From positions 9,978,068 through 10,042,067 of the forward strand of contig OZ038472.1 of assembly GCA_964036295.1 (NCBI GenBank): a stretch of 64,000 nucleotides of DNA, in the 5' to 3' direction. The number at the start of each line of letters is the position of its first letter. Positions within the stretch are counted from its first letter, which is position 1. The notes below the pieces were generated by a model, which saw only the letters and a list, made by a program, of their open reading frames with translations, was not told the DNA's origin and made no database searches. The stretch comes from Plumapathes pennacea (taxonomy: Eukaryota > Cnidaria > Anthozoa > Antipatharia > Myriopathidae). The position numbers were made by a program, and so were the translations under genes. This document shows positions 6,601 to 64,000 of this stretch, one piece after another.

Positions 6601-9600
6601 CCCTAAATCATGTGAAAATTATGGTGAGCACAAAAATGTGGTAGAGGGGGGAGGGGAGGAGAAGGAGATCTTCAGTAGATAACCCCCCGGGGGGGACTCC
6701 CACATAAAAATGACGGGGATACTTGTCGGGAATTTTTGTTTTGACCCCTGAGAGGTACTAAAATGGGTGTGGCTCGAGCTTGCTTTGACCCCTAAAAGGT
6801 ACCAATAATAACATGCCAAGAATTTAAATCCCCCCCCCCTCCCCAGGGAGATAACCCTTTTTAAGACATGGAAATGTAAAATTTTATACCCTGGTGGACA
6901 CCATGTAGGAAATATATGGGAGTACCCCCTGGGAGTTATCCTGGCCTCCCGTGGTGCTCAGCAATAATATACTTGCCATGTAAATACAGCACTATCAACC
7001 TTTTTAACATGTTTATTGCTTGTAGGTATGTTTCTTGTCCTGCCCTGTATTGAGAAAGTGGACCTGAGGACTGTGTCTTTTGATGTCCCACCACAGGAGG
7101 TAGGTACTGCATGCTCCATACCTTCCCCTACCCCCTAAAATAATGTGTGCTCCAACCCTACCCCTACCCCCTAAAATACTGTGTGCTCCAACCCTACCCC
7201 TACTTCTTAAAGTACTGTGTGCTCCAACCTACCCCTACCCCTAAAATACTGTGTGCTCCAACCTACCCCTACCCTCTAAGGGCCTGTGGGCAGGTAAAAC
7301 ATACTGTCTTGGGTGTCCTACCACAGGCAATAAATATTATACAGTAAGAACATTGTTCTGTGCAGTGGGTGTGAAGCAAAATGAGTATCACTGAACTGAA
7401 TATGTGAACTTTCAGATCCTGACAAAAGACAGCGTGACTGTTGCCGTGGATGCTGTTGTGTACTTCAGGATCAGCAACGCCACCATGTCTATTGCCAATG
7501 TGGAAGATGCCAATCGTTCAACTCGCCTCCTCGCACAGACAACTCTACGTAATGTGCTGGGCACCAAGAATTTGAGTGACATTCTGATGGAGCGTGAGCT
7601 CATCAGCAACACCATGCAGGTACAGCTGTAGCAGTTATTCCACGTGTCGTATTCTCCCCCAGTTGTTTTTGTTATTTTATTATTTTATTATTTTATTATT
7701 TTAATAATGGACCTTGCAGAGGGGGCTTATTAGAGCATTTAGAGTGGACAGCAGCGTTACTTGTGATGGCACGAGGTTTAGTTTGTTAGCTCCCCTCAAG
7801 ATACTGACCCTCTGACCCCTTATGCTGGGCACTCTGATCCTTTTCACAGTCAACTCTTGATGAAGCTACTGACCCTTGGGGAGTGAAAGTGGAGCGAGTT
7901 GAAGTGTAAGTACTGTATTTGATATTTGTTTATCTGGAATCATGGTGATGCAATCGAACCTGTTTAAATTTTATTCTTCATGTTCTGTTATCATAAGCTC
8001 TCAGAAAATACGTTAATTTGAAAATTGACTGTTTCGGAAATGGGAATCAAAACTTTTGTCGGTTTGATTTGAAAATGCCAAACCAACTTTTTTCCGATAC
8101 TCAATGAAGTTGACTAAAAAAATGTGTCAGCGAATTTTGATCCGTTTTGTTTTAAGGATTTTATTCTCTTTTAAAGTGCAGGGAGCGTTTCGGAACTACT
8201 TTTTTATACAAACTGTTCAGTAAAACAAGAACAACAAAAAATCAAAAATCGCTGACACAGTATTTAAGAAAAGCTCATCTTCTACACCTCACGACAATTT
8301 GAGTGATGTCAAACAAACCGCTCAAAAGTTTTAGTTCCCGAAAGGCCTAATTTTTCGCGAAAATCTTTCATCGATCTGATCTAGATCACACTCTACCTTT
8401 AAGGTGTATGAAAAATGTAATAGTAGATCTGCATTCTTCAGTCCCATACCTTTACAACGATATGTAGTACGTGTATACAGTCAACTCTCTCTAAAGCGGA
8501 CACCCTCGGGACCAAAGCTACTGTCCGCTTTAGAGAGGTGTCCGCCTTAGAGAGAGTTCATGTAACTTGATACCCGAACCTCCAAACTGAAACCAGGGCT
8601 TTATTACAGTGTTCAATGATCACATGACGGACCGGTTGCGTCTCTTTTAGCCGTCCTAACGGAACCCAACACAGCTCATACGAACTTTGAACGTTTGTGA
8701 ATTAGCCTTAAAACAAAACTAGTTTTTGTCGCTTATTATTTAACTTGGGTACGGGGTTCATAACCTCCCTTCATTACGAAAAAAACTTTGTAATGCTGCA
8801 CTGTTGTTGCGTTGCAAGTCTGGCATCTTGCAGGCGCTGTGATATCTTCATTAAACTAGTCACCATATCACCATCCTTGAGCTTCGAAGAGGCAAAGAGC
8901 TGCAAGTCGGCCACAATCTTCATCGCTTCTGCAGTCGACTGGATGGTACTCTCGACTGGTTCGATGTCTACTTCTTCCTGGTCACTATCTTCTACTACGG
9001 CCTCTTTAGAAGCTGGCTCATCTGCTTCGGCGGCACAAAGAGCAAGTGCCTCGTCGCGAAGAACTTCCCGCCAACCATCTCTAGAAGTGTCTACTGGGGT
9101 GCTGATATTGGAACTTCTTCATCTGCAGAGATATACTGCTCCGCCGAAATCCCGTCGATACCACCGATACGTTGAACAAGGTTTGCGAATTCCTCAAACA
9201 ATGCAGTGTCGTTGCTAACCTCTGACTCACAAACGGATGGCGAAAATCCACACTTGTGAAAACACTTCCTGATCATTTCTTGAGGAACTTCTTCCACAGG
9301 CTTGCTTAACCCACCTTATTGCTTGCATCACATCAACCGTATTCACGATTTCGGCAGCGGTGGACCGACTGTTAACACGTGAAACCACAAACTTCAGAAG
9401 TAGTTTTCTGTAGCGGACCTTAAAGTTCTTGATTATTCCCGCATCGAGTGGCTGAAGGCGTGATGTCGTGTTAGGTGGCAAGAACACTATCTTGATGTTG
9501 GAACACGAACCTTGTACATCGCTCGGATGACAGCCAGCATTGTCGAGAAATAGAATGATATGCCTCCCTTGGTTTCGCATTTTCCTGTTCAGTTTGTTCA

Positions 9601-12600
9601 ATAGCTCTTTCATTATTTCTGAATTCATCCAGGATTTGGGATTCGAGAAATATTTTACATGCGGAGGCCGTTTCCCTGGCAAATTATTGAAGCATCTCGG
9701 ATTAAGGCTCCTCCAAATAACAACGGGCTCCTCTTTGTCACCATTGGCATTTGTAAAAAGTGCCACGGTCATACGTAGCTTGGACTTCTTACCACCTTTG
9801 CACCTCCGCCCTTCCTCGGCTAGGCTTCTCTCTGGTAGTGCCCGGAAGAAACACCCTGTTTCATCTTCGTTCCATATGTCTTCAGGATTGTAGCCTTTTC
9901 AAAGCTCCCTCAACCTCTCCATCCACGATTCAACTGCCTCCTTTTGAACCTGGCCAGATTCACCCTCTACAGCCCTCTGTTTAATGCCATATCGATTCTT
10001 CCAGCATTCTAGCCAGCCGCTCGACGCCTTGAAGTCAGAATACTTCCCCAGTCTTGCGGCTATTGCCGATGCTTCCTCCTGTAGCATAGGACCATTTATC
10101 GGAACCATCGAGTCCCTTGCCAGACAGTACCACTTATATACTGCTTCGTTAATCTCTTCGTACTTCCCTTCTCGTGCTCTCTTGTAGCCGGATTGGCCCA
10201 TGCTTTCATAACGAGCTCGGATACTGGTTTCATCTTTAAATATAGCAGAAATCTGGGTTTTGCCCACTCCGAAAATCTCAGCTATTTTTCGACAACCATG
10301 TTTAGGGTTTCCTTTAGCGTGGTCGAGAACAGCTATTGGTTCTTCTAGAGTGAGCGTTTTGTGTTTTACACGAGCACTTTTTGAGAGCGACATTTTGTAC
10401 TGCAAACTTGCCACACCTCACAGCATGGATCGCTCTGTATGGCAGCTGGCCTGGAATTTCCGGCCAATTAAAGTTTATGAATGGGTGCATTGTAATCTGG
10501 AGTTTTCTTACAATTGGTTGGGGAAAAGATGAGCGGAGTGCAAGATATTCTCGTGTGATTCGTTCATTCGTGGGCACCATGTATATAAAGACGACTGGAC
10601 CCCTACTCTGGGAGAAATTTTGGAGTGCAAACGAGAGCCACAAAACGAGAAAGACCCGCACGCTGTTGCCGTAACCAGAAATGGAAAAATTGTCGGCCAT
10701 GTGCCATTGATCTACAGCCGCTATGTCAGTCGGTTCCTGGAACTTGAACCAAGTAGCGCCTCTTGTGAAGTTACAGGAGAAAGATTAAACCGTGGGGGTG
10801 GCTATGGGCTTGAAGTCCCATGCAAGTACAAGCTACAAGGTGTTCCAGAGGCCGTGGCCTGGGTGGCAAAATGCATGGACAAAGAAACTGGGAAGATTAA
10901 GACTGCCATTGAACGAAACCAAGACACGAAAAAGCGAAAGAAGAATGCAAGTGACTCTAGTAAAAGGATGCGTAAATGAGTCTTTTTGCCTGTGAAGTGT
11001 AAAAAAATGACGGAAAAAGGGACGATGTATGCATTGATTATCCCCTACTGTCATGTCTGGTATATTTTATTAAATCCAGAGACGTACCTGTCATCAAATT
11101 GCGCTATTTTCAGGTCTGTTATAAATTTGCGTAAACATCCGGTGTCCGTTTTGAGAGGTTTTTCGAACCAAAATTTTGAAAAAAAGTGTCCGCTGTCCGC
11201 CTTAGAGAGGTGTCCGCCTTAGAGAGAGTTCAGTTACAGAGAGACAAGTGAAATTCGGCAGGGACCAAATTTGCTGTCCGCCTTAGAGAGGTGTCCGCTT
11301 TAGAGAGTGTCCGCTTAGAGAGAGTTGACTGTATATCTTAAATAGCAACGCTACAATGAGGGACGCGCGAACCTTTATCGAGATCTTAATAGGGTTTCCT
11401 CTTAAGAGTTCCGTCCTATTATACATCCTTGCAAATGCATCATGTCACTTTAGGCAGCCCTGTAGCGGACACCTTCTATTTAGTGGACAGTTGCCAAAGT
11501 CCTGAATACCTACTCAGAAGATACTTTATTAATCGGACATGTGCACTTTATACGTACACTCCAACGAGTGATTTTTATTGTTTTCACTTTCCTGAATTGA
11601 CATATATTTTCCTGCCCTGCTAGAAATGTCTAAGGAAAGTGCTCGAAACTCGGGCTAAAATAGTTGTACTGCAAATGATTACCTAGACTTGCCACAGTTC
11701 AACTTACTCGTCCGTGACAAACTTTGGATCATAACTTTTTTGGCTTTTATGCGATTCCTATTAAATTTTGAGGAACGTTGCAGCTATCATTCAGCAATAA
11801 TATGATAGAATTCGATTTAACTGGGGAAAAGTATTTGTAGTAATATTATAGCTTAAGTGGACAGCACTTTGAACAAAATCGCACCCAGTGAAAAATTTTG
11901 CTGGTGTATTTTGTTAAATTTCTGGAATCAGTTTATATTGACTTACTACATATCTTAACCAAGTTTCAGAAAAATTGTCGGAGCAGAAAAGGGGAGGTAA
12001 TAAAACTATCAAAATTTCGCCATGAATTTCTCTTCTGCTCCGACGATTTTGCTGAAACTAAGGTATATGTATTCTGTTAATATAAGCTGATTCTAGGAAT
12101 TTAACAAAAATATACCAGCAGAATTTTTCACTGGGTGCGATTTTGTTAAAAAAGTACTGTCCACTTAAGCTATAATATCACTAAAAATATTTTTCCCCAG
12201 TTAAATCGAATTTTATCATATTTAATATTGCTGAATGATAGCTGCAACGTTCCTCAAAATTTTATAGGAATCGCGTAAAAGCCAAAAAAGTTATGATCCA
12301 AAGTTTGTCATGGACGAGTGCGCCAGATGAAACTCCGGAGTGACCTTAAGGTGACTCCATTGTAATTTTTGGCTCTCTAAAATATAATTTCTTGCCTTGA
12401 AAAACAGCTTCCAGTAGAACAACTAACGATTAAAATGTTCTTTATATGTTCTTTACATGTCTTATCACAACAATCACATTTCTTAAATACAGGAGTGCTG
12501 GTTCCACGGTTAAAAGAAAGAACGGTTCTCGCGAGCCCTCCAAAATCTGTGGAAGTCTATGCTGCTTAATATTGGCTTTCTGAAAATAAAACTTTTTCGC

Positions 12601-31700: not shown

Positions 31701-34700
31701 CACAATACCAGAAATCCTTGAATAAATGCCCCCTTGAATAAGCTGTGCCACTCCTCTCAGACAAAATTTGAAACAAGCGCCCCCTCCCGTCTCCCTTTGT
31801 TTTGTTGTTTTTGGACAAATGGTTAATTAACAAGGCGCCCCCCTTAAATAAGCACCCCTCCTTATCCTAAATTTGAAAGTAGATCTACAGTAACTTGGAA
31901 TGTTGAAAAGCAATTATTTTGATTAATCACTCTTCTGCATCTGAGGCTCATCTCATGTGAGCGCACCTCAATTTCCTGCATCACCTCCACCCTAGCCAGT
32001 GCGTGCAGACGTCCTGTATCTCACCGTATCACGCAGGCTACTCCACACCCCAGTCTCCCACAAACTCACTTTGATCTTCGTCTGTAAAGAGCTACTTAGA
32101 ACTTGTCCTTTTCTATTATCATGCTTTTTCTGCAGGAGATCTGAGCAAAGCACTAAAGCAGAAGAGAGTAAACAAGCAATCTGTAGATGAAATTGTATGT
32201 AACTATTTATTGCTTCCCCTGAGAGTTCGAGATATTATTGAATAGTTAATTTTAAAATGTAATTTCCTTCTGATCCTGAACTGTGCCAGTCCTTAACATT
32301 TGATGTTTTCACCAATTATTAAAACAGATTGTGAAGAAGTGGTTTGGTCAGATGATAGAAGCTCTAAAGTTTGTACACAATAAACAAGTGATTCACAGGT
32401 GAGGGTAAACTTCTTGTGTTTTTGTTACAACTGGTTTTTATTTGACTGTTGGTGTGATTTTTTGATTGGTTAAAAACCATCGTCATTCTATCCTTCGTTA
32501 AAACTGTGCATACAATATACACAACAAGACGACTTTTGGCGAGGAAATTATGCAAAGAAAATTATCCGAGTTTTTTATTTTATTTTAATAACATGCGATT
32601 TTTTTGTTGAAAGTGTAATTCACGCTTTAAATCACGCTTTGTCACGCTTTTAATCATGCTTTGTAAAGTATGAAAAAAGCGTGATAAAGCGTGAAAAAAA
32701 AGCGCGAATCGCGCTAGTTAAATCACCCTTAAAAAATTAATAAGCGTAAATCACGCTGTAAATCACGCTTTGTCACTTTTTTGAGAAGTGTGATAGAAGC
32801 GTGAAAAAAGACGTGAATCACGCTATTTAAAATTTTAATCACGCTTTTTTTTTTGCTCTTTAAATCATGCTTTATCACACTTCTGAGAAGTATGATAGAA
32901 GCACGAAAAAGAATATAAAAAGAAGCGTGGTCGAATCACACTTTAAGAACACTTCATGAGACATACAAAAATGTGAAAAAGGTGGCAGAATTAGCCAGTT
33001 GCGGTTAGTTGAGAGCGCAAAACAAATCACTCGGTGACTGAAAAGCACCAACAGACTGAACATGACATTAACTGGGACTCTGCTGAATGCGTCAGCCACA
33101 CTAGGAAGCTGGTACACAGACTTAGAACGGAAACCTCTCAACAGATGCCAACAATTACCTGCACCTTACAAACGACTGATAGATGACATCAAACGAAACC
33201 GATCGAACAATAGGCAAATCGACAGGACAACAAAATCAACCGACCAATAACGAAACAAAACCGAGTCAACTCGACCAACCATAAAACGACAAAACGGACC
33301 AATCACATCAACGACCAGAGACAAAAATACCGCCATCTGACGAAACATATCACTTGACTCTGAAGATGACTTCTACTCAGGGAGTCGAAACGTTAGTCTC
33401 CAACAACAGTCCTCCTGAAGAGTTCATACTCCTGGGTTCAAACCATTTTTCACAGAGAAAACTGTGTTCGGATATTATCAATAACTAGCGACAGTTTGCC
33501 AGGCGGGGGTTATCGAATGAATCACTAGTATTATACAAACATGGAATACAAAAATTTCTAAATACACATTAAAGGTGTACAATAAAACAAAGAACTTACT
33601 TACTTATTTAGTTATTATAACAATGTATTGATATAAGTTGATGAATGAGGGATTCTCTAGTAGCGGGGTTGATCGAGAGAGTCCCTCTGCATCTCATTAT
33701 TGACAGTTGGTCCTGTGGGAAATTGCTCTGTATTTATAATTGTTTAAGTGTAATACCAGCTCTTAAGGCCCCGTCCACACTAATCCGGATGAATTTGAAA
33801 ACAGAGTTTTCATACGAAAAACGCATCGAAAGTTTTCCGTCCACACTATCGTTTTCGAATCGTTTTCGCTGTCCACACTAATACGCTGGACTGACCAAAA
33901 ACGCTAAATGCCCGAATTGAGCATGCACACAGAGATCACTGACATCATAAAGTCATGCATGCGTTTTCGAAAATATCCGTTTTCGGTCACCGAAAACGCG
34001 TCTTAGTGTGGACGGGAGGCCAAAACGGATAAATAAATATCCGTTTTCAAATTTATCCGGATTAGTGTGGACGGGGCCTAAGAGAACCAGGTTGACTGCG
34101 TCGGCGTGGCGGAAGACAAACTGGTGTATCAACTGTGTGTTGACGAGGGTAATGGAACGCCGTGAAAGAGACAATAGCTGACATTTCGAGCGCTAGCCCT
34201 TCGTCAGAGCGAATTTATAATTGTTGCTGCACGTCGCCATTTGCTTATGGCCACCTGCGATGTGCAGTACCATTCCATTGGATTTGTGCGCCTTGAAATT
34301 GCCCTCTGTCAACTGTCTTGATGATTTCAAGGAGGCCATCTTATTATTGACAGTTGGTCATGTGGAAATTGCTCTGTACGCTGTTAGGTACAGTATTTGG
34401 CCAGTTCTTATCTTCAGCCCTTGAGGAAGTTGCATTCTCTGGAGTAGAGACCAGTTTTGTTACTGTACGTAACCATTTGCCTATGGCCACCTGCGATGTG
34501 CAGTGCCATTGGATTTTCCCGCCTTGTAATTGGATCCTCTGTCTGTCTTGATAGTTTTGAGGAGGCCATGTCGGCCGAACATTAACTTTAGACATATGAT
34601 ATTCTTGCTCGTGATAGGTGCTCTAAGAATCTCTACAAGTGTGGAGTCACCTGAGGGTAGTGGGCCAAGGAGGTCGCTTGCCAGACCTGTTTGCACTTTA

Positions 34701-50700: not shown

Positions 50701-53700
50701 TTTTAATTTTATTTTTCTGGGTTACGAATCAGCAGATGGTGATTGGTTCATATTATCACGTGATTTGCGATGACGTTAGGTAATTGACTTTCCTCGCGAG
50801 CGACTTGAGATGTCGGCGATTGAAGCAAGAGAGTGAAATTGAGTTGTGTTAAAATTAACCGATGTTCAGTTCGGATGGGATACAGGCTGGCTCTGTGGAT
50901 GCACGGAAGTCATATTTTAAGAACGATTTTGGCTTCCATTGCTTTGAAGCGTCGGAAGATTTGACACAAGCTTTATGTATTACCAGCGGGACCCCCGTAA
51001 AGTACGAAAGGTTGTGTTTTTGCAATTTCTAATGAATTTGCTCTGGTTTTTCTGATATTGGTTATGTTTCACCCTGCTGTGTTTTGCGTTGTTATTGCGA
51101 CATTTTGGCGTGGTGCCATAAAAGGTCATATATATATATTATTATTATTATTATTATTATTATAAAAATGCCAAAAATATCCATTTCCGGTGAATGTTTA
51201 CAAGTTCATACAGTATGCAAATTAGTCAGGTATTGCATGTGACGTCATAAAAAAGCCATCTCAAAAGTAACGTATCCTATAAGTCCAATACACTAATATG
51301 TTCAAGACTATTGTGCCTTAAGACTAAGCAGAATTCTGAGTCGATACAAAATATCTATTGGGAGCTATGGAAGTTTGCATACCGTGACAACAAAGTAGTG
51401 TGACACGCCCGTGGCCGACTAAAATCGGTGCTTGTGTCTGAATTATAAAGTTTTCCTTCACGAAACATTTTAAAATTGGCACTGCGAAAGATGTGAACTA
51501 ACATAACCAAGCTAAGTCGCAGATCAGCTTCATTTCGTGTTCCAATTCCACTAACATGGCGGCCGCATACAAACTCTTAATCAAATCTCCAAAAAACGGA
51601 TTGCTACTGCTTCCCCAAAATGAAGCCTAGACAATCCAAAATTGGCATCTGGACTAATTCAGGCATGCTCTTGTTAGTTCTGGAGTCAAAAAGGTACAAT
51701 CTGTTATTTTGAAGGTTGCTGCGGCCGCGTGACCCGTGAAAACTGCGTTGTTGCAAACGAAGAATATTCCCACGGGGCCTTCGATAATTGTTTTCTCCTA
51801 ATTATTATAAAACTCTTTTTCGTGAATTAATGTTTGACCGAAATTAGAACAAAAGAGGGCAAGAAAAATAAAGGGAGCTCTTGAATCCGCCACGTGCAAA
51901 GTTCCTCTGTCGGGACCCCGCGTGTCTCTATTCATTGTACTAATGACGCCACAAGCGCACTGGCCACGGGCCTGTCTTGTGTGAAATTTCACTGTACGTT
52001 GGTTGTGATTGTCCGGGTTAGAGTAGTATCAAGGAAGACTGTTGTTGGAGAGTGACGGAGCTGAAGTCATCTTCAGAGTCAAGTGAAGAGGTTTGTCAGA
52101 TGGTGGTAATCTTGAATCTTGGATCTTGGGAAGACGGCCGATTCATTATTTAATTGTTTGATTATTATTATTTTTTAATTTTAATAATTAAACTCATTAA
52201 TTAATTAACTAATTAATTGACTATTACCCACGACTTGTTTCGGCACCCACGACTTTATACCCACACCCACGACTACCTACACCCACTACCCACTACCCAC
52301 TACCCACGACTTGTACCCACGACCCACGACTCACGACCATTAGTCAAACTCGTATTTATACCTCTGGTCTTTCATGTGATTGGTCCGTTTTGTCGTCATA
52401 TGGTTGGTCGAGTTGACTCGGTTGTGTTTCGTTATTGATCGGTTGACGTTCTGTTGTCCTCTCGATTTGTCTATTCTTCGTTCGGTTACGTCTGATGTCA
52501 TGTATCAGTCGTTTTGTAAGGTGCCGGTAATTGTTGACATCTGTTGAGAGATTTTCTAAGTTTGTGCACCAGCTTTCTAGTGTAAGTCGAAGAATGGGGC
52601 ATTTCTATGTTGGAAAACATGTTTAAATCAGATTAAAGCGTTATAGTTTTCTACTTGGTCATTATTCTCATGTTTTGGTTATTTCCTGTAGAGGAAATCC
52701 GAGACTGGATGAAAAAAATGCCGGAAATAACACAGGCATTGGATGAGGCCAAAAGGAAATTTTCTTCAAATGAGGTGAGGTGCAATTTTGACCCATTTTT
52801 AAAGTTTGATTGAAACATTTCAAAAACCACAGGCACAAAGGTCCCTCCAAGCATCTCTTGAAAGCATTTTCAAATATATTGCTTCACTGAGAGAACGGAG
52901 CGAATTTATGTCATGAACGTCCTTTGATCGAGCAATATACAATGGAATTTCCTGTGTGTAAAGCATAGTGAAAAAAAGGCCCTGTCAAAAAATCACTAAA
53001 CCCTTGGATACAGTGGCTGCATACGTGACTGCGTGCACTTGTAGATTGAGATGATTAATTCCTGAGACACACTAAAAAAAAACTTAAGCCTACTATGACT
53101 CACCCAAATATAATCAGAATACTGCACAATGTGCTGGTAAGCTGAAGCCACAGATTAGGGCACAAAGGCCACAGTGGTAGCGGGCATTACCCCTTGATCT
53201 ACCAAATAAAAAAAAATTGTGAGCCCAAGTAATAGCAGCCATGTACAGCTGTTTCGGCCTTTTTGGGCCTCGTCAGCATGGCATAGCTATACTTGGGCTA
53301 GGGTTCCCACATTCAGGTAACAAGCTGTAAAATCGTAAGGCTTGTGGGATGTGGCTTAATTACATAATCAGAATACTGCACAATGTGCTGGTAAGCTGAA
53401 GCCACAGATTAGGGCACAAAGGCCACAGTGGTAGCGGGCATTACCCCTTGATCTACCAAATAAAAAATAAAAAAATTGTGAGCCTAAGTAATAGCAGCCA
53501 TGGACAGCTGTTTCGGCCTTTTTGGGCCTCGTCAGCGTGGCATAGATATGCTTGGGCTCGGGTTCCCACATTCAGGTAACAAGCTGTAAAATGGTAAGGC
53601 TTGTGGGATGTGGCTTAATTACATTACGATTTCACCCAAATATAGTTTAGTTTTCCTTTCTAATGGCAAAACGAGGGCACAGATGTGGCGGCAGCGATGT

Positions 53701-54449: not shown

Positions 54450-54633
54450 CTGAGGGTGTTTCTTTTTAGGATCCAAATCCGGATCACGGATCCAAAAACA
54501 GATTATCTGTTTCTTTACTGAAATCCAAATCCGGATAAAGAATCCGTGTGATCCACACTTAGGACGGATTCACTGGATCATATCCAAAATTGGATACTTT
54601 AGATCATGGATCCATTAAAGAAACGCACCCTGA
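54450..54633. repeat. MITE, AGGGTGTTTCTTTTTAGGAT ends
   Basis: Left CTGAGGGTGTTTCTTTTTAG, right TTAAAGAAACGCACCCTGA. The interior is dense in GGATCC / ATCCGGAT motifs (AATCCGGATCACGGATCC, ATCCAAATCCGGATAAAG). Confidence 0.88.
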
Positions 54634-54892
54634 ATATTGAAGTCCATCGTTCCAAACAATCCAACAGTCCTCATCTTCCTTGCAACGCGGCTTCTGTTCA
54701 AACATCCATAATGACGCAGTTTCTCGAGGATTCAAAATATCAAAAGCCTTTTTTAGGTCGAGAAAGAGTATCACGTTAAGTTTACCGTCATCGATATTGA
54801 GAAACCAGTCGTTAGTTGCATCGTGACAGTCGAGGGAAGCGGCCTGAAACTTGATTGTAATTTGTACAGTACATTGTTAGTCGTTAGATAAC

Positions 54893-55745
54893 TCATCACC
54901 AGAAATTTGAGACATTTTGCGTCCCCGATCTTTCCAGTCTTTTCCAGCAGCTTTCGGTGTGATCATGCGCTGTTCGTATATCCAACATGGCGTCAAGTAA
55001 CGTCAGCTCCTGCGCGCCAGCGCGTTTTCCCGCCAAAGTTACATGCTGTGTTTTGCTGAAATAACACAATCACGCTATATTTTTGTATCTTTTCCAATAT
55101 TAGACCACCATATTTGATGCAATTTCACCTATGCGGAAGGCGGATCATGAAAATGAGCTTTCGCTCGCTGCAATTTCCATTTAACTTGGAGCTTTTTGGC
55201 CAAAGTTATTAACCCCTAAAGTGAGGACATTTTACTGGATTTGCGACATACGACAACACAGCACAGCAATCGCCACGGCTGATCGTGCTCAATCACAAAA
55301 TGTATACATCAAATTTGACTTTGGGGACTTACGGAGGTATTGCATGAAATGCTTAACTCTTCGTTAATAACATCTCGGTTGCACATTTTTTCCCGAACTC
55401 GACGTTCGTCTATAAAATGCAATTTACCGAGTGCTACTGGCCACTTTTTTCGACTTTTTTTCCCATTTCCCTATGTAATCCCTTATGGCGTCGAACGAAA
55501 CGGTTTTTTGCAATTTGTATACATCAAATTTTACCGGAGGAAAATAAGTTTTCCACTGTTGTGAAAAGTAAGCTTTGCTCTTCAACAGGCCGGTTGCACA
55601 TTTTTACAAACACGCTTCGATAAGGAGAAAAACACGATTTATTATCTGGTCCCATACATTTCTTTATAGAAAGCGGCACGGCTTGGACGTTGGCGTCAGC
55701 TTACATAAAGTATAAATCGGATGTCTCAAATTTCTGGCGACGTGT
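54893..55745. mobile_element. ~850-bp element with CCAGAAATTTGAGACAT ends
   Basis: CATCACCAGAAATTTGAGAC (54893-54912) and GTCTCAAATTTCTGGCGACG (55722-55741) are inverted. Inside, GGTTGCACATTTTT occurs twice in the same direction (55378 and 55593), each ahead of a similar stretch. No transposase motif is seen. Confidence 0.6.
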
Positions 55746-62369: not shown

Positions 62370-64000
62370 TTACGATCTATCCCACATGCCTCTTTTTGGG
62401 TGATAAAAGTGGTAGAAACCGGGAATTTTGAGTCGCTCAGATTCCAGTCCAACGCGAAGCATGCGATCGAGCAAGTCCCAGTCCTCGCCTCCCCAGTGCG
62501 TCGTAAATCCATCGATATTCATTCCTGAAAGACAATATTATAACGAACAAATTTATTGTGCGGGCCTTGACCAATTTTGAGAGGTATAGGATGTCGGTAA
62601 ATGCTTGCTGACTTTAACCCTTTTACTTTGAGAGTGATCAACTTCAATGTTCTCTTTTAGTCATGTTTCACCATGGATCTATCATGCAGTATGAAGAATT
62701 TGCCACTTGATAATTTTCTCAAACAAAGCTGGTTTGACAATTAATTCTCACTACATCACCCGTACATACTGATTTGTGTTTTGAGCTTTGGTACGAAACG
62801 GCTTAATACAAACATTAAACAGGAGCTACCTTTAAAACGTTCCCAATCCGACTTGTAAACAGCCACCAATCCACTTCCATACATTTCCCAGTATCCTTTG
62901 GGCTCGACCGGCGAGCTTCCTGGGCTCAAACGTGCAACAATCGGCAAGAAAACGGTCTTATTCTCAATAGTGTGCTGAAAACGGAAAATTATGAATAAAT
63001 TTCCTGTCTCAAGACTTGTGAATTAAAGAAGTTCTGACACCCAGGACTCCAACCCCTAAATGGCTTGTTATGTTTGTAACTATGTGAAAGGATAGAGTTA
63101 AACTGACAGAAACCAGAAAACGTTTTAAACCAAAGTATTTACATATAATCGCAGTGATTATCGATTTATCGCACTCCGGCTCTGGCTTGCGCAACAATGT
63201 CCGCTTGCAAGTGAATAACAGCGATCCACATCAATTAATTATTAATGCCTTGTCATCTGTCATGGTGACTGACCAATCACAAAGCTTTCCCGAACTGGGT
63301 CATCTCCCTTGGGCATTTATCGCACCTCGGCTCTGGCTTGCGCAACGAAATATTTTCCCTATGGTCGCTGGCATTTATAGCACGAACGCCCGCTACCAGT
63401 ATCGGGTAATTTGGCGAATAGAGAAATTTTCTCTAGGCCAAGACCCTGCGGGGGCAAAAACTGTCCGAAAATATCGTTAATGTTGGATAATTTGAAAACA
63501 TTAGAAGTAGTACTCTGGTTACTAGCACGAGATTTTGAGTAGACAATACACTTATTTATGTTATAATAACCTCTTCATGAGTTGCAGTCTGAGTAGCGGC
63601 GTATTAGGGAAGGGATAGAAGGGGTGGGGAAAGTGGAAAGGGTGTCTTCCCACACCATCCCCATTCCCTTTTGCGCCGCTACGCAGCCTACGCGAGTTTA
63701 AGTGCGTCCAACGCGGCCTGTGTTTTGGAAGGAATGTGATTACTAGTGCACTTCTTACCTTTCTTATACAATCCAAAAGAGTTATGGGTACAGTAATGTG
63801 CAAATCCATCAAAAATATAATGCTCTCAGGGTCACTAACTGACTTCACAGCATGCTGTATAGCGGCAGTCTTGTGAAACGGCCCCGACATCTTTAGCAGA
63901 GTGCATCTCAGAGCAAGAGAGCTGTTTTTCAGGATTTCATTGATGTCTTCGTCGGTGCTATTGAAGTCAACGACAACCAGGTGAAAGTTTTCGTCCCTGG
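62370..64000 (-). CDS. B4GALNT3: Beta-1,4-N-acetylgalactosaminyltransferase, B4GALNT3/4 type (3' part)
   Basis: Three exons on the minus strand: 64000-63759 (runs off the window), 62974-62830, 62524-62370. Introns are GT-AG and the stop is TAA at 62370-62372. The product is the catalytic C-terminus of a type II Golgi enzyme that adds GalNAc in beta-1,4 linkage to GlcNAc (LacdiNAc) in animals. Motifs in order: [40 protein letters not shown] (donor/metal site, DxH in place of DxD); [39 protein letters not shown] (the acceptor/catalytic WGGEDWD loop); and [12 protein letters not shown] just before the stop. The N-terminal anchor and stem would lie outside. It could also be called a chondroitin-GalNAc-transferase-like protein, but the [11 protein letters not shown] and HPKRGMW pattern favours B4GALNT3/4. 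Its convergent neighbour is STKLD1. Confidence 0.9.
62613..62806. repeat. Family A MITE in a glycosyltransferase intron
   Basis: TTAACCCTTTTACTTTGAGA at the left. The interior TGATCAACTTCAATGTTCTC and ATTCTCACTACATCACCCGT match the family; the right end is degenerate. Confidence 0.75.
62975..63758. other. Glycosyltransferase intron with a repeated 31-bp phrase
   Basis: TTTATCGCACTCCGGCTCTG GCTTGCGCAAC occurs at about 63163-63194 and again, with one change, at 63318-63348. Nothing else is recognised; the plus-strand frame at 63154-63480 spans both and has no motif. Confidence 0.55.

What the first reader, a model, noticed from the sequence alone, without database searches (positions are those of the whole stretch)
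53111..53624. Tandem hammerhead retrozyme antisense in the last STKLD1 intron
Seen: two direct ~255-bp units, each with every invariant hammerhead base on the minus strand (CUGACGA, a closed GGCC stem II, GAAA, a U-H cleavage position) and a stem I whose two strands pair over about 20 bases. Known: small tandem type I hammerhead repeats in animals (retrozymes) give circular RNAs. Inferred: the two cuts (53503/53502 and 53244/53243) would release a 259-nt RNA that could be ligated into a circle.
Basis: partly seen in the sequence, partly recalled or inferred. Interest (0 to 1): 0.87.

Follow-up and report, generated by a model that had tools for sequence, protein, structure and literature searches.

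The report
Hammerhead retrozyme with Penelope-type insertion scars
A short repeat carrying a self-cutting RNA sits here as a double copy and belongs to a family scattered through this genome; the scars at its insertion sites resemble those of Penelope-type jumping genes, which suggests what copies it into DNA, a question that the reviews we saw leave open.

Summary
Window 53110-53624 is a tandem dimer (259-nt period) with two type I hammerheads on the minus strand, both over the Rfam cut-off (37.9 and 35.8 bits), flanked by a perfect 13-bp target-site duplication (TSD). It is a non-LTR retrozyme. The STKLD1 placement is not confirmed, and this copy looks decayed (stem I of copy 1 is weakened).

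What is new comes from the family. The genome holds 153 ribozyme cores within 3 mismatches and 397 matches to the 3' segment. I mapped 113 insertions, after dropping 32 hitch-hikers and 5 duplicates. Copies start at two places inside the RNA, A (median u138) and B (median u176). In 38 insertions a second copy runs inverted from the other side of the break; of the 33 with both outer ends at A or B, 32 have one of each. TSDs, commonly 13-14 bp, were found in 70 of 111 (0 of 444 in mismatched controls). This is like the "tail" signature published for Penelope-like elements, which are present here in many nearly identical copies.

Best reading: a small RNA, probably circular, copied in trans by a Penelope enzyme through double-sided target priming. 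The kind is known; the link to its mobiliser is new evidence. No RNA or enzyme was tested.

The parts
53100..53112 (.). target-site duplication, 3' side of the element (TCACCCAAATATA on +)
   Evidence: perfect 13-bp repeat of 53632-53644; the same method finds TSDs in 70 of 111 family insertions and in 0 of 444 mismatched controls
53632..53644 (.). target-site duplication, 5' side of the element
53113..53631 (-). retrozyme insertion, dimer, 519 nt between the TSDs
   Evidence: most family matches end near this 3' end or about 38 nt further on in the next unit
53366..53624 (-). unit copy 1 (5' unit on the minus strand)
53110..53365 (-). unit copy 2 (3' unit on the minus strand; its last 3 bases are shared with the TSD)
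53497..53541 (-). type I hammerhead, copy 1; cut after GUC between 53503 and 53502
   Evidence: RF00163 37.9 bits; stem I weakened by mismatches
53238..53282 (-). type I hammerhead, copy 2; cut after GUA between 53244 and 53243
   Evidence: RF00163 35.8 bits; stem I intact
53244..53502 (-). 259-nt RNA expected between the two cuts (u1-u259 of this report)
   Evidence: RNA itself not observed
53362..53371 (-). reverse-transcription start site A in the internal unit (about u132-141)
   Evidence: 89 outer ends of family insertions, median u138; u136-145 predicted unpaired 0.96-0.99, u132-134 paired
53325..53334 (-). reverse-transcription start site B in the internal unit (about u169-178)
   Evidence: 55 outer ends, median u176; u171-177 predicted unpaired 0.82-0.95
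33034..33416 (+). 3' fragment of a Penelope-like element (context, not part of the insertion)
   Evidence: tblastn with L160, best piece 89% identity; DNA identity to the 52 kb fragment 87% over 236 nt and 74% over 95 nt
52032..52629 (-). second 3' fragment of a Penelope-like element, about 480 bp from the retrozyme

Best explanation
The element is a dimeric genomic copy of an animal-type non-LTR retrozyme. Transcripts with two or more units are cut by their hammerheads into 259-nt RNAs, most probably closed into circles (inferred). A Penelope-like element (PLE) protein of the same genome binds the RNA and cuts the target on both strands, commonly 13-14 bp apart. It uses the two exposed 3' ends as primers, one at site A (about u138) and the other at site B (about u176), helped by about 3 nt of base matching between target and RNA. 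One strand gives the direct copy, running back round the RNA for a fraction of a unit up to about three units. In about a third of mapped cases (38 of 113) the second strand survives as an inverted 5' piece. Shown from sequence: ribozymes, TSDs, the two start sites, their one-of-each use, microhomology, reading across the ribozyme cut, and PLEs in the genome. Inferred: circularity, the PLE protein as the enzyme, a dimeric complex. The copy in the window is probably a fossil.
For: Two Rfam hammerheads over the cut-off. Family: 153 cores within 3 mismatches, 397 matches to the u110-133 segment. Of 150 mapped loci I dropped 32 that share one insertion inside a larger repeat and 5 duplicates, leaving 113. 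TSD score >=10 in 70 of 111 (2 more reached the edge of the fetched stretch), median 13.5 bp, against 0 of 444 mismatched pairings. Of 151 outer ends 89 lie at A (median u138), 55 at B (median u176) and 7 elsewhere (the class limits, A u123-155 and B u156-192, were drawn after seeing the ends). Of 38 insertions with an inverted 5' piece, 33 have both outer ends at A or B: 32 one of each, 1 A/A, 0 B/B; P 3e-12 with direct-only frequencies A 53 / B 20, Fisher 1.2e-7. Microhomology at the 3' junction averages 3.1 nt (70 insertions) against 0.44 in permuted pairs, and 3.2 (32 insertions) against 0.34 at the inverted junction, 0 of 5000 permutations each. The published PLE hallmark is alike: reverse transcription from two adjacent internal sites, both strands cut and extended, a 30-40 bp 'tail' (PMC11167929, parts 1-2 of 4 read). 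PLEs with RT and GIY-YIG domains are here, 81 matches scored out of 1293 candidates, many 97-99% identical, reading frames up to 841 aa, several head to head. Units of one direct piece share subfamily markers in 44 of 45 comparisons, about 45% discordance expected at random.
Against: No RNA, ribozyme activity or enzyme was tested. In vitro the PLE start site was reported as not homologous to the cut DNA, whereas these insertions show about 3 nt of matching. 41 of 111 insertions have no TSD at the threshold; 5 of 38 inverted cases have an end elsewhere or not readable. After microhomology correction the A starts (median 135) lie at the border of a predicted helix. Sister units of one insertion are no more alike than units of different insertions (94% both, only 3 within-pairs). 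In an HHR-independent sample of 41 loci, 8 have 5' ends within 9 nt of the ribozyme cut, so some templates may be cleaved linear RNA.
Confidence: 0.78

Rival explanations
1. The family is moved by a LINE-type (APE or restriction-like endonuclease) machinery; the inverted pieces are ordinary twin priming on a linear RNA, and the fixed 3' ends are where that RNA happens to end or be primed.
For: 5' truncation, TSDs of 10-15 bp, inverted 5' pieces and microhomology are also known from LINE-mediated insertions (general knowledge; the listing shows L1 twin-priming papers, not read). A LINE-like reverse-transcriptase piece lies at 54607-54962, recalled from its motif; no Pfam hit.
Against: Two internal start sites used one at each end in 32 of 33 cases is not what ordinary twin priming predicts. 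No regular A-tail or 3' simple repeat: 3 of 113 3' flanks begin with a short run, of G or T. The tail signature is described as unique to PLEs (abstract of PMC11167929).
Confidence: 0.12
2. The template is not a circle but an uncut multimeric transcript of genomic tandem copies; the ribozyme plays no part in mobility.
For: For an Anolis PLE the hammerhead was not needed for insertion in vitro and unprocessed RNA was called the dominant substrate. A multimer also allows reading across the cut.
Against: Among the 113 kept insertions an all-against-all comparison of 120-nt flanks found one pair, L012/L013, with both flanks alike, so new copies do not carry flanking DNA of a source locus. 108 of 113 direct parts are shorter than two units, and linear templates could only shorten arrays, yet 48 of 113 have 259 nt or more, up to 778 nt. 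Units within a piece are subfamily-concordant, 44 of 45.
Confidence: 0.27
3. The tandem repeat is satellite DNA made by replication slippage or unequal crossing-over, and the ribozyme is incidental.
For: Tandem arrangement; one shared insertion site where one of 32 copies (L031) has a dimer and the others a monomer shows that unit number can change after insertion.
Against: Dispersed insertions with TSDs (70 of 111, control 0 of 444), fixed 3' ends and inverted 5' pieces.
Confidence: 0.03
4. The copy in the window is a functional ribozyme gene acting antisense in the host gene (for example making a circRNA that controls it).
For: Ribozyme cores of both copies are intact and the element lies in a region with gene-like pieces.
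Against: Six of the seven substitutions between units fall in the ribozyme and stem I, and copy 1's stem I is broken; it is one of many dispersed copies; host gene and intron are not established.
Confidence: 0.04

Closest known systems
Animal non-LTR retrozymes (Cervera and de la Pena 2020, PMC7229834; parts 1-4 of 6 read)
   Same: Type I hammerhead, monomer in the 170-400 nt range, tandem dimers and partial copies, G+C under 50% (45.4%), TSD longer than 4 bp, PLEs in the same genome, stem III palindromic and short (ACAGCUGU).
   Different: Sequence not compared with any published retrozyme (none was at hand). Copies seen are fragments to dimers, up to about three units, not long arrays. The two-site, opposite-end insertion signature is not described in what I read; the 2020 review says metazoan retrozymes show no conserved motif that would reveal their mobiliser (PMC7761336, passages).
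Penelope-like elements, e.g. Poseidon of Anolis (Frangieh et al. 2024, PMC11167929; parts 1-2 of 4 read)
   Same: Two adjacent internal start sites, 'tail' of 30-40 nt (here 38-39), both target strands cut and extended, hammerhead in the element.
   Different: The retrozyme has no ORF, RT or GIY-YIG domain and is 259 nt; it has a full type I hammerhead. Start points here match the target by about 3 nt on average, whereas the Anolis start site was called non-homologous.
Adineta vaga Penelope families (PMC3846280; passages)
   Different: Autonomous elements; that paper proposed self-priming on antisense template for the inversions, whereas here both outer ends lie at RNA start sites next to the TSDs.
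Plant LTR retrozymes (PMC4918200, search listing only; features from PMC7229834 and PMC7761336)
   Same: Hammerhead-bounded RNA unit moved by other elements.
   Different: Type III hammerheads, LTRs with PBS and PPT, 4-bp TSD, Gypsy-type mobiliser.

Membership tests
Animal non-LTR retrozyme | type I hammerhead | tested here: met
   RF00163 hits over the cut-off in both units
Animal non-LTR retrozyme | tandem units of about 150-450 bp, dispersed in many copies | tested here: met
   259-nt period; 153 ribozyme cores within 3 mismatches; 397 matches to the 3' segment
Animal non-LTR retrozyme | G+C under 50% | tested here: met
   45.4%
Animal non-LTR retrozyme | TSD longer than the 4 bp of plant retrozymes | tested here: met
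   13 bp here; median 13.5 bp in the 70 of 111 insertions with a TSD
Animal non-LTR retrozyme | no protein coding | tested here: inconclusive
   stop-to-stop frames of at most 67 aa inside the element; no family search was made on them
Animal non-LTR retrozyme | self-cleavage and expression as linear and circular RNA | not testable with these tools
   no RNA data; fold predictions only
Mobilised by PLE machinery | two adjacent internal RT start sites 30-40 nt apart | tested here: met
   A median u138 (89 ends), B median u176 (55 ends), 7 of 151 ends elsewhere; spacing 38, or 39 after microhomology correction
Mobilised by PLE machinery | both target strands cut and extended, tail at one end only | tested here: met
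   38 of 113 with an inverted 5' piece; 32 of 33 classifiable have one A and one B end
Mobilised by PLE machinery | AT-rich target | tested here: inconclusive
   TSD ends AT-rich with a weak symmetric motif AAGC|TA...TA|GYY, partly confounded with microhomology
Mobilised by PLE machinery | start site not homologous to the cut DNA | tested here: not met
   mean 3.1 nt shared against 0.44 control; a short match, so this may be a difference of degree
Mobilised by PLE machinery | autonomous PLE with the same scars in the genome | tested here: inconclusive
Penelope-like element (autonomous) | RT plus GIY-YIG ORF | tested here: not met
   519-nt element with no frame of 70 aa or more; it is not itself a PLE
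LINE/SINE pair | A-tail or 3' simple repeat at the 3' end | tested here: not met
   3 of 113 3' flanks begin with a short run; the listed ends show none in common (by eye)
Plant-type LTR retrozyme | type III hammerhead, 4-bp TSD | tested here: not met
   type I model over the whole length, 13-bp TSD

The most novel reading that the evidence does not exclude
Animal retrozymes are obligate partners of Penelope-like elements, as Alu is of L1, but moving as an RNA circle. One two-headed PLE complex holds one circle and starts both DNA strands at once, one at each of two neighbouring sites, so each insertion bears exactly one 'tail'. The one-A-one-B rule would then be a genomic footprint of a dimeric reverse transcriptase acting on a single RNA.
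Probability: 0.5. Interest if true: 0.82.

Novelty: new member of a known kind. Interest (0 to 1): 0.66.

Why it matters
What copies animal retrozymes into DNA has, in the papers I saw, been argued from co-occurrence: a 2020 review states that the repeats show no motif to deduce the mobiliser (PMC7761336), and a 2024 review still names LINEs or PLEs (PMC11722881). Reading insertion scars across one genome gives a specific, testable answer (PLE, two start sites, one per strand). It also supplies a 259-nt natural substrate for the little-understood PLE reaction and a simple count that can be repeated in axolotl, coral and mussel genomes.

Tried and rejected
Rejected: satellite origin (TSDs, fixed 3' ends); plant-type retrozyme (wrong hammerhead type and TSD); chance hammerhead (E 5.7e-6 and 2.8e-5 for the window, and many genomic copies). 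A degenerate hammerhead pattern with up to 2 mismatches found nothing in the window; the pattern did not fit these ribozymes and the result is not evidence. An exact core scan of viral contigs found nothing. A second genome search with RF00163 at E up to 10 added only 4 weak matches, and at that threshold 11 of 14 control genomes also ring, none over the cut-off; at the default 0 of 14 ring. Within- against between-insertion unit identity was uninformative (3 pairs). Subfamily concordance (44 of 45 within direct pieces, 45 of 49 between direct and inverted pieces) fits one RNA per event but could also come from subfamilies active at different times.

The drop from 270 (u1-24) to 209 (across the cut) first suggested linear templates. 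The HHR-independent sample is 41 loci: the exact u110-133 matches of C1 and of C2 up to 12.35 Mb (44 loci, 3 duplicates left out). 23 crossed the cut, 8 ended at u251-u6, 8 ended short of it and 2 could not be classified. The script printed 24/8/7/2; I moved L151 by hand, because its T run is expanded and it starts at u13. Of the 8 ends, 5 lie 3-9 nt past the cut, 2 at u1-u2 and 1 at u6, so stalling in the folded ribozyme is at least as likely as run-off. The excess of ends there has P 7e-5, against 9 ends in u7-u109 counted by hand (one of them, L149, is a locus whose other end is cut off). Structure prediction and structure search were not used: the element has no protein.

Seven literature searches were made; the closest are retrozyme with Penelope (14 papers listed) and retrozyme with target-primed or twin priming (44 papers with at least two of three terms, 10 listed). 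No title or abstract start that I saw reports start sites, tails or inverted pieces for retrozymes, but most of these papers were not opened and supplements could not be read.
Full report
What is there. On the minus strand of window 53113-53631 lies a 519-nt insertion made of two copies of one unit (259-nt period, 2.0 copies, 95% matches). It is bounded by a perfect 13-bp direct repeat, 53100-53112 and 53632-53644. Each unit carries a type I hammerhead over Rfam's cut-off (37.9 and 35.8 bits, cut-off 34). The predicted cuts, 53503/53502 and 53244/53243, release 259 nt. I number that unit u1-u259, u1 being the first base after the cut. Stem III is the palindrome ACAGCUGU, so a dimeric ribozyme like the one described for amphibian retrozymes (PMC7229834, part 3) is plausible. 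In both copies the simple minimum-energy fold prefers a GCUG/CAGC helix to the three-way junction. Copy 2 has an intact stem I; in copy 1 it is broken by mismatches (hammerhead-constrained -19.0 against -27.4 kcal/mol). Six of the seven substitutions between the copies fall in the ribozyme and stem I. This copy is probably decayed.

The family. The window lies in a 290-Mb assembly of 24 contigs (G000, unnamed). That it is an animal is my inference, not a result. It holds 37 scored Hammerhead_1 matches, 34 over the cut-off, from only 74 scored of 41,234 candidates, with 0 of 14 control genomes ringing. There are 153 places within 3 mismatches of the 33-base core, 98 within one mismatch of the TAATAA-loop subfamily, and 397 places within 2 mismatches of the u110-133 segment; the reversed-pattern control counts of these calls are zero. 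These counts include hitch-hikers and, a variant ribozyme of another repeat (L019 type). Of 159 loci then held I left out 7 second views of the same place and 2 of the L019 type, and mapped 150 on the circular unit. Thirty-two share identical flanks: one retrozyme insertion with its own 12-bp TSD inside a larger repeat that was copied along. In one of them, L031, the insertion is a dimer, in the others a monomer. Five more are duplicates by shared flanks. These 37 were dropped, leaving 113 insertions. A later all-against-all comparison of 120-nt flanks found one further pair, L012/L013, with both flanks 91-94% alike but different ends; both were kept. Sampling is not random: 94 of the 113 were found by ribozyme or DNA similarity, 19 by the 3' segment alone.

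Insertion scars. TSDs with a score of at least 10 were found in 70 of 111 insertions (two more reached the edge of the fetched stretch), median 13.5 bp, 39 of the 70 being 13 or 14 bp. The same procedure on left and right flanks of different loci found 0 in 444 trials. Copies end at two places on the RNA: of 151 outer ends, 89 lie at A, median u138, 55 at B, median u176, and 7 elsewhere. The class limits (A u123-155, B u156-192) were drawn after seeing the ends; the 10th to 90th percentiles are u133-143 and u170-183. After taking away bases shared by target and RNA the right-end medians are 135 and 174. In a circular fold of the window unit, u136-145 (0.96-0.99) and u171-177 (0.82-0.95) are unpaired, while u132-134, at the near edge of A, are paired. 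Seven full units were cut out of the loci, the window's own among them, and six could be scored: the mean for A (10 bases) is 0.26-0.60 against 0.42-0.49 overall, and for B (12 bases) 0.64-0.79, so B is steadier than A.

Double-sided priming. In 38 of 113 insertions an inverted piece lies 5' of the direct one. Its outer end, next to the TSD, is usually also a start site. Of the 33 with both outer ends at A or B, 22 are B left and A right, 10 are A left and B right, 1 is A/A and none is B/B. With the frequencies of the 75 direct-only insertions (53 A, 20 B, 2 other) the chance of 32 or more mixed pairs is 3e-12; Fisher's test on the table gives 1.2e-7. The other five are L028 and L081 (left end at u100), L099 (u44), L044 (right end u111) and L152 (cut by the edge of the fetched stretch). 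Target and RNA share 3.1 nt on average at the 3' junction (70 insertions; control 0.44) and 3.2 nt at the outer end of the inverted piece (32 insertions; control 0.34), with 0 of 5000 permutations as high in each; direct 5' ends (38 insertions) share 1.2 nt (control 0.33). TSDs were chosen as the longest match, which may inflate the overlap a little; with only those whose core outside both overlaps is at least 8 bp (41 of 70), the 3' overlap is still 2.2 nt. The nick sites show a weak symmetric motif, AAGC|TA at one side and TA|GYY at the other.

What this resembles. Frangieh et al. 2024 (PMC11167929, parts 1 and 2 of 4 read) purified a Penelope-like element protein of Anolis. It cut and extended both strands and started reverse transcription at two adjacent internal sites; [quoted passage not shown] The Adineta paper (PMC3846280, passages; [quoted passage not shown] The retrozyme insertions show the same arrangement with a 38-39 nt spacing. 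One reported point differs: the Anolis start site is said not to be homologous to the cut DNA, while these insertions show a short match.

The candidate enzyme. The genome holds 30 GIY-YIG matches (150 of 275 candidates scored). One locus, L160, has a 536-aa open stretch with RVT_1 (E 3.3e-8) and GIY-YIG (E 4.2e-6), the Penelope combination, and an inverted piece of its own at its 5' side. Eighty-one relatives were scored out of 1293 candidates, many 97-99% identical, frames up to 841 aa, with several pairs lying head to head, for example C1:16410476-16411990:- and C1:16411991-16413259:+. Two 3' fragments of such elements lie in the window itself, 33034-33416 and 52629-52032, the second about 480 bp from the retrozyme. 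The direct comparison of scars is therefore missing.

Template. Starts at A or B lie in mid-unit. In the HHR-independent sample of 41 loci, 23 crossed the ribozyme cut, 8 ended at u251-u6, 8 stopped short and 2 were not classifiable (L151 moved by hand). So at least those 23 templates were joined at the cut: circles or uncut multimers. Ends at the ribozyme are more frequent than expected (P 7e-5); 5 of the 8 lie 3-9 nt past the cut, which fits stalling in the folded ribozyme, and 2 lie at u1-u2, which fits cleaved templates. Direct parts range from 34 to 778 nt, 48 of 113 being 259 nt or longer and 108 shorter than two units. Repeated subfamily markers within one direct piece agree in 44 of 45 cases, and between direct and inverted pieces in 45 of 49, where random drawing would give about 45% disagreement. 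A circle explains all this most simply, but subfamilies active at different times could also give the agreement, and no RNA was seen.

Verdict. A member of a known kind, the animal-type non-LTR retrozyme, here as a probably decayed dimer. The larger result is that its insertions bear the two-site, one-per-end scar of Penelope-like elements. The papers I saw leave the mobiliser open: PMC7761336 (passages) says no motif reveals it, and PMC11722881 (passages) names LINEs or PLEs. In the literature searches I saw no report of start sites or tails for retrozymes; this covers listings and abstract starts of an open-access library, and the papers named above as far as read.

Noticed in passing
L031, L053, L078-L080 and 27 further loci (32 in all): One retrozyme insertion (TSD gcataaaaactg) hitch-hikes in a larger amplified repeat; L031 holds a dimer at that site, the other 31 a monomer, so unit number changed after insertion.
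   Followed up: partly
L019, L020 (C1:13769935-13772982, C1:22456802-22459849): A variant hammerhead (38.5 bits, 11 equal-scoring places listed) sits as a single motif inside a repeat of about 3 kb or more that is 98.6% identical between these two loci; only about 50 nt resemble the retrozyme. Weak zinc-finger-like matches below cut-off.
   Followed up: partly
L012 and L013: Two copies at the same spot of a repeated target (flanks 91-94% alike) but with different ends: L012 double-sided A/B, L013 direct ending at A. Repeat insertion at one site or remodelling of one insertion.
   Followed up: no
window 33360-33373 (+) and 52063-52076 (-): Near the 3' ends of both Penelope fragments lies CTGAAGATGACTTC; at 33 kb it is followed by GGAGTCGAAACGTTAGTC, which looks like the minimal hammerhead of PLEs (resemblance recalled, not an Rfam hit).
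   Followed up: no
L140-L159: Short copies often begin inside the palindrome ACAGCTGT or at the ribozyme cut (8 of 41 loci of the HHR-independent sample end at u251-u6); L145 is a head-to-head pair whose junction lies in that palindrome.
   Followed up: partly
window 53366-53624 against 53110-53365: Six of seven substitutions between the two units fall in the ribozyme and stem I region, about a third of the length.
   Followed up: no
window 9227-10417 (-): Tc5/pogo-type transposon: DDE_1 (5.5e-31) and HTH_Tnp_Tc5 (1.4e-17) in two adjoining open frames.
   Followed up: no
window 10533-10979 (+): Open frame with a HIRAN domain, E 3.4e-9.
   Followed up: no
window 62373-63998 (-): Exon-like pieces of a chondroitin/beta-1,4-GalNAc-type glycosyltransferase (Glyco_transf_7C 1.9e-9; CHGN below cut-off).
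   Followed up: no
window 54607-54962 (-): LINE-like reverse-transcriptase piece (FLDLKKAFD) by eye; no Pfam match.
   Followed up: partly
L033/L036, L051/L058, L083/L084, L026/L067, L141/L146: Pairs of copies with the same flanks, about 5 to 300 kb apart in four pairs and about 15 Mb in the last: duplicated stretches that carry retrozymes.
   Followed up: no
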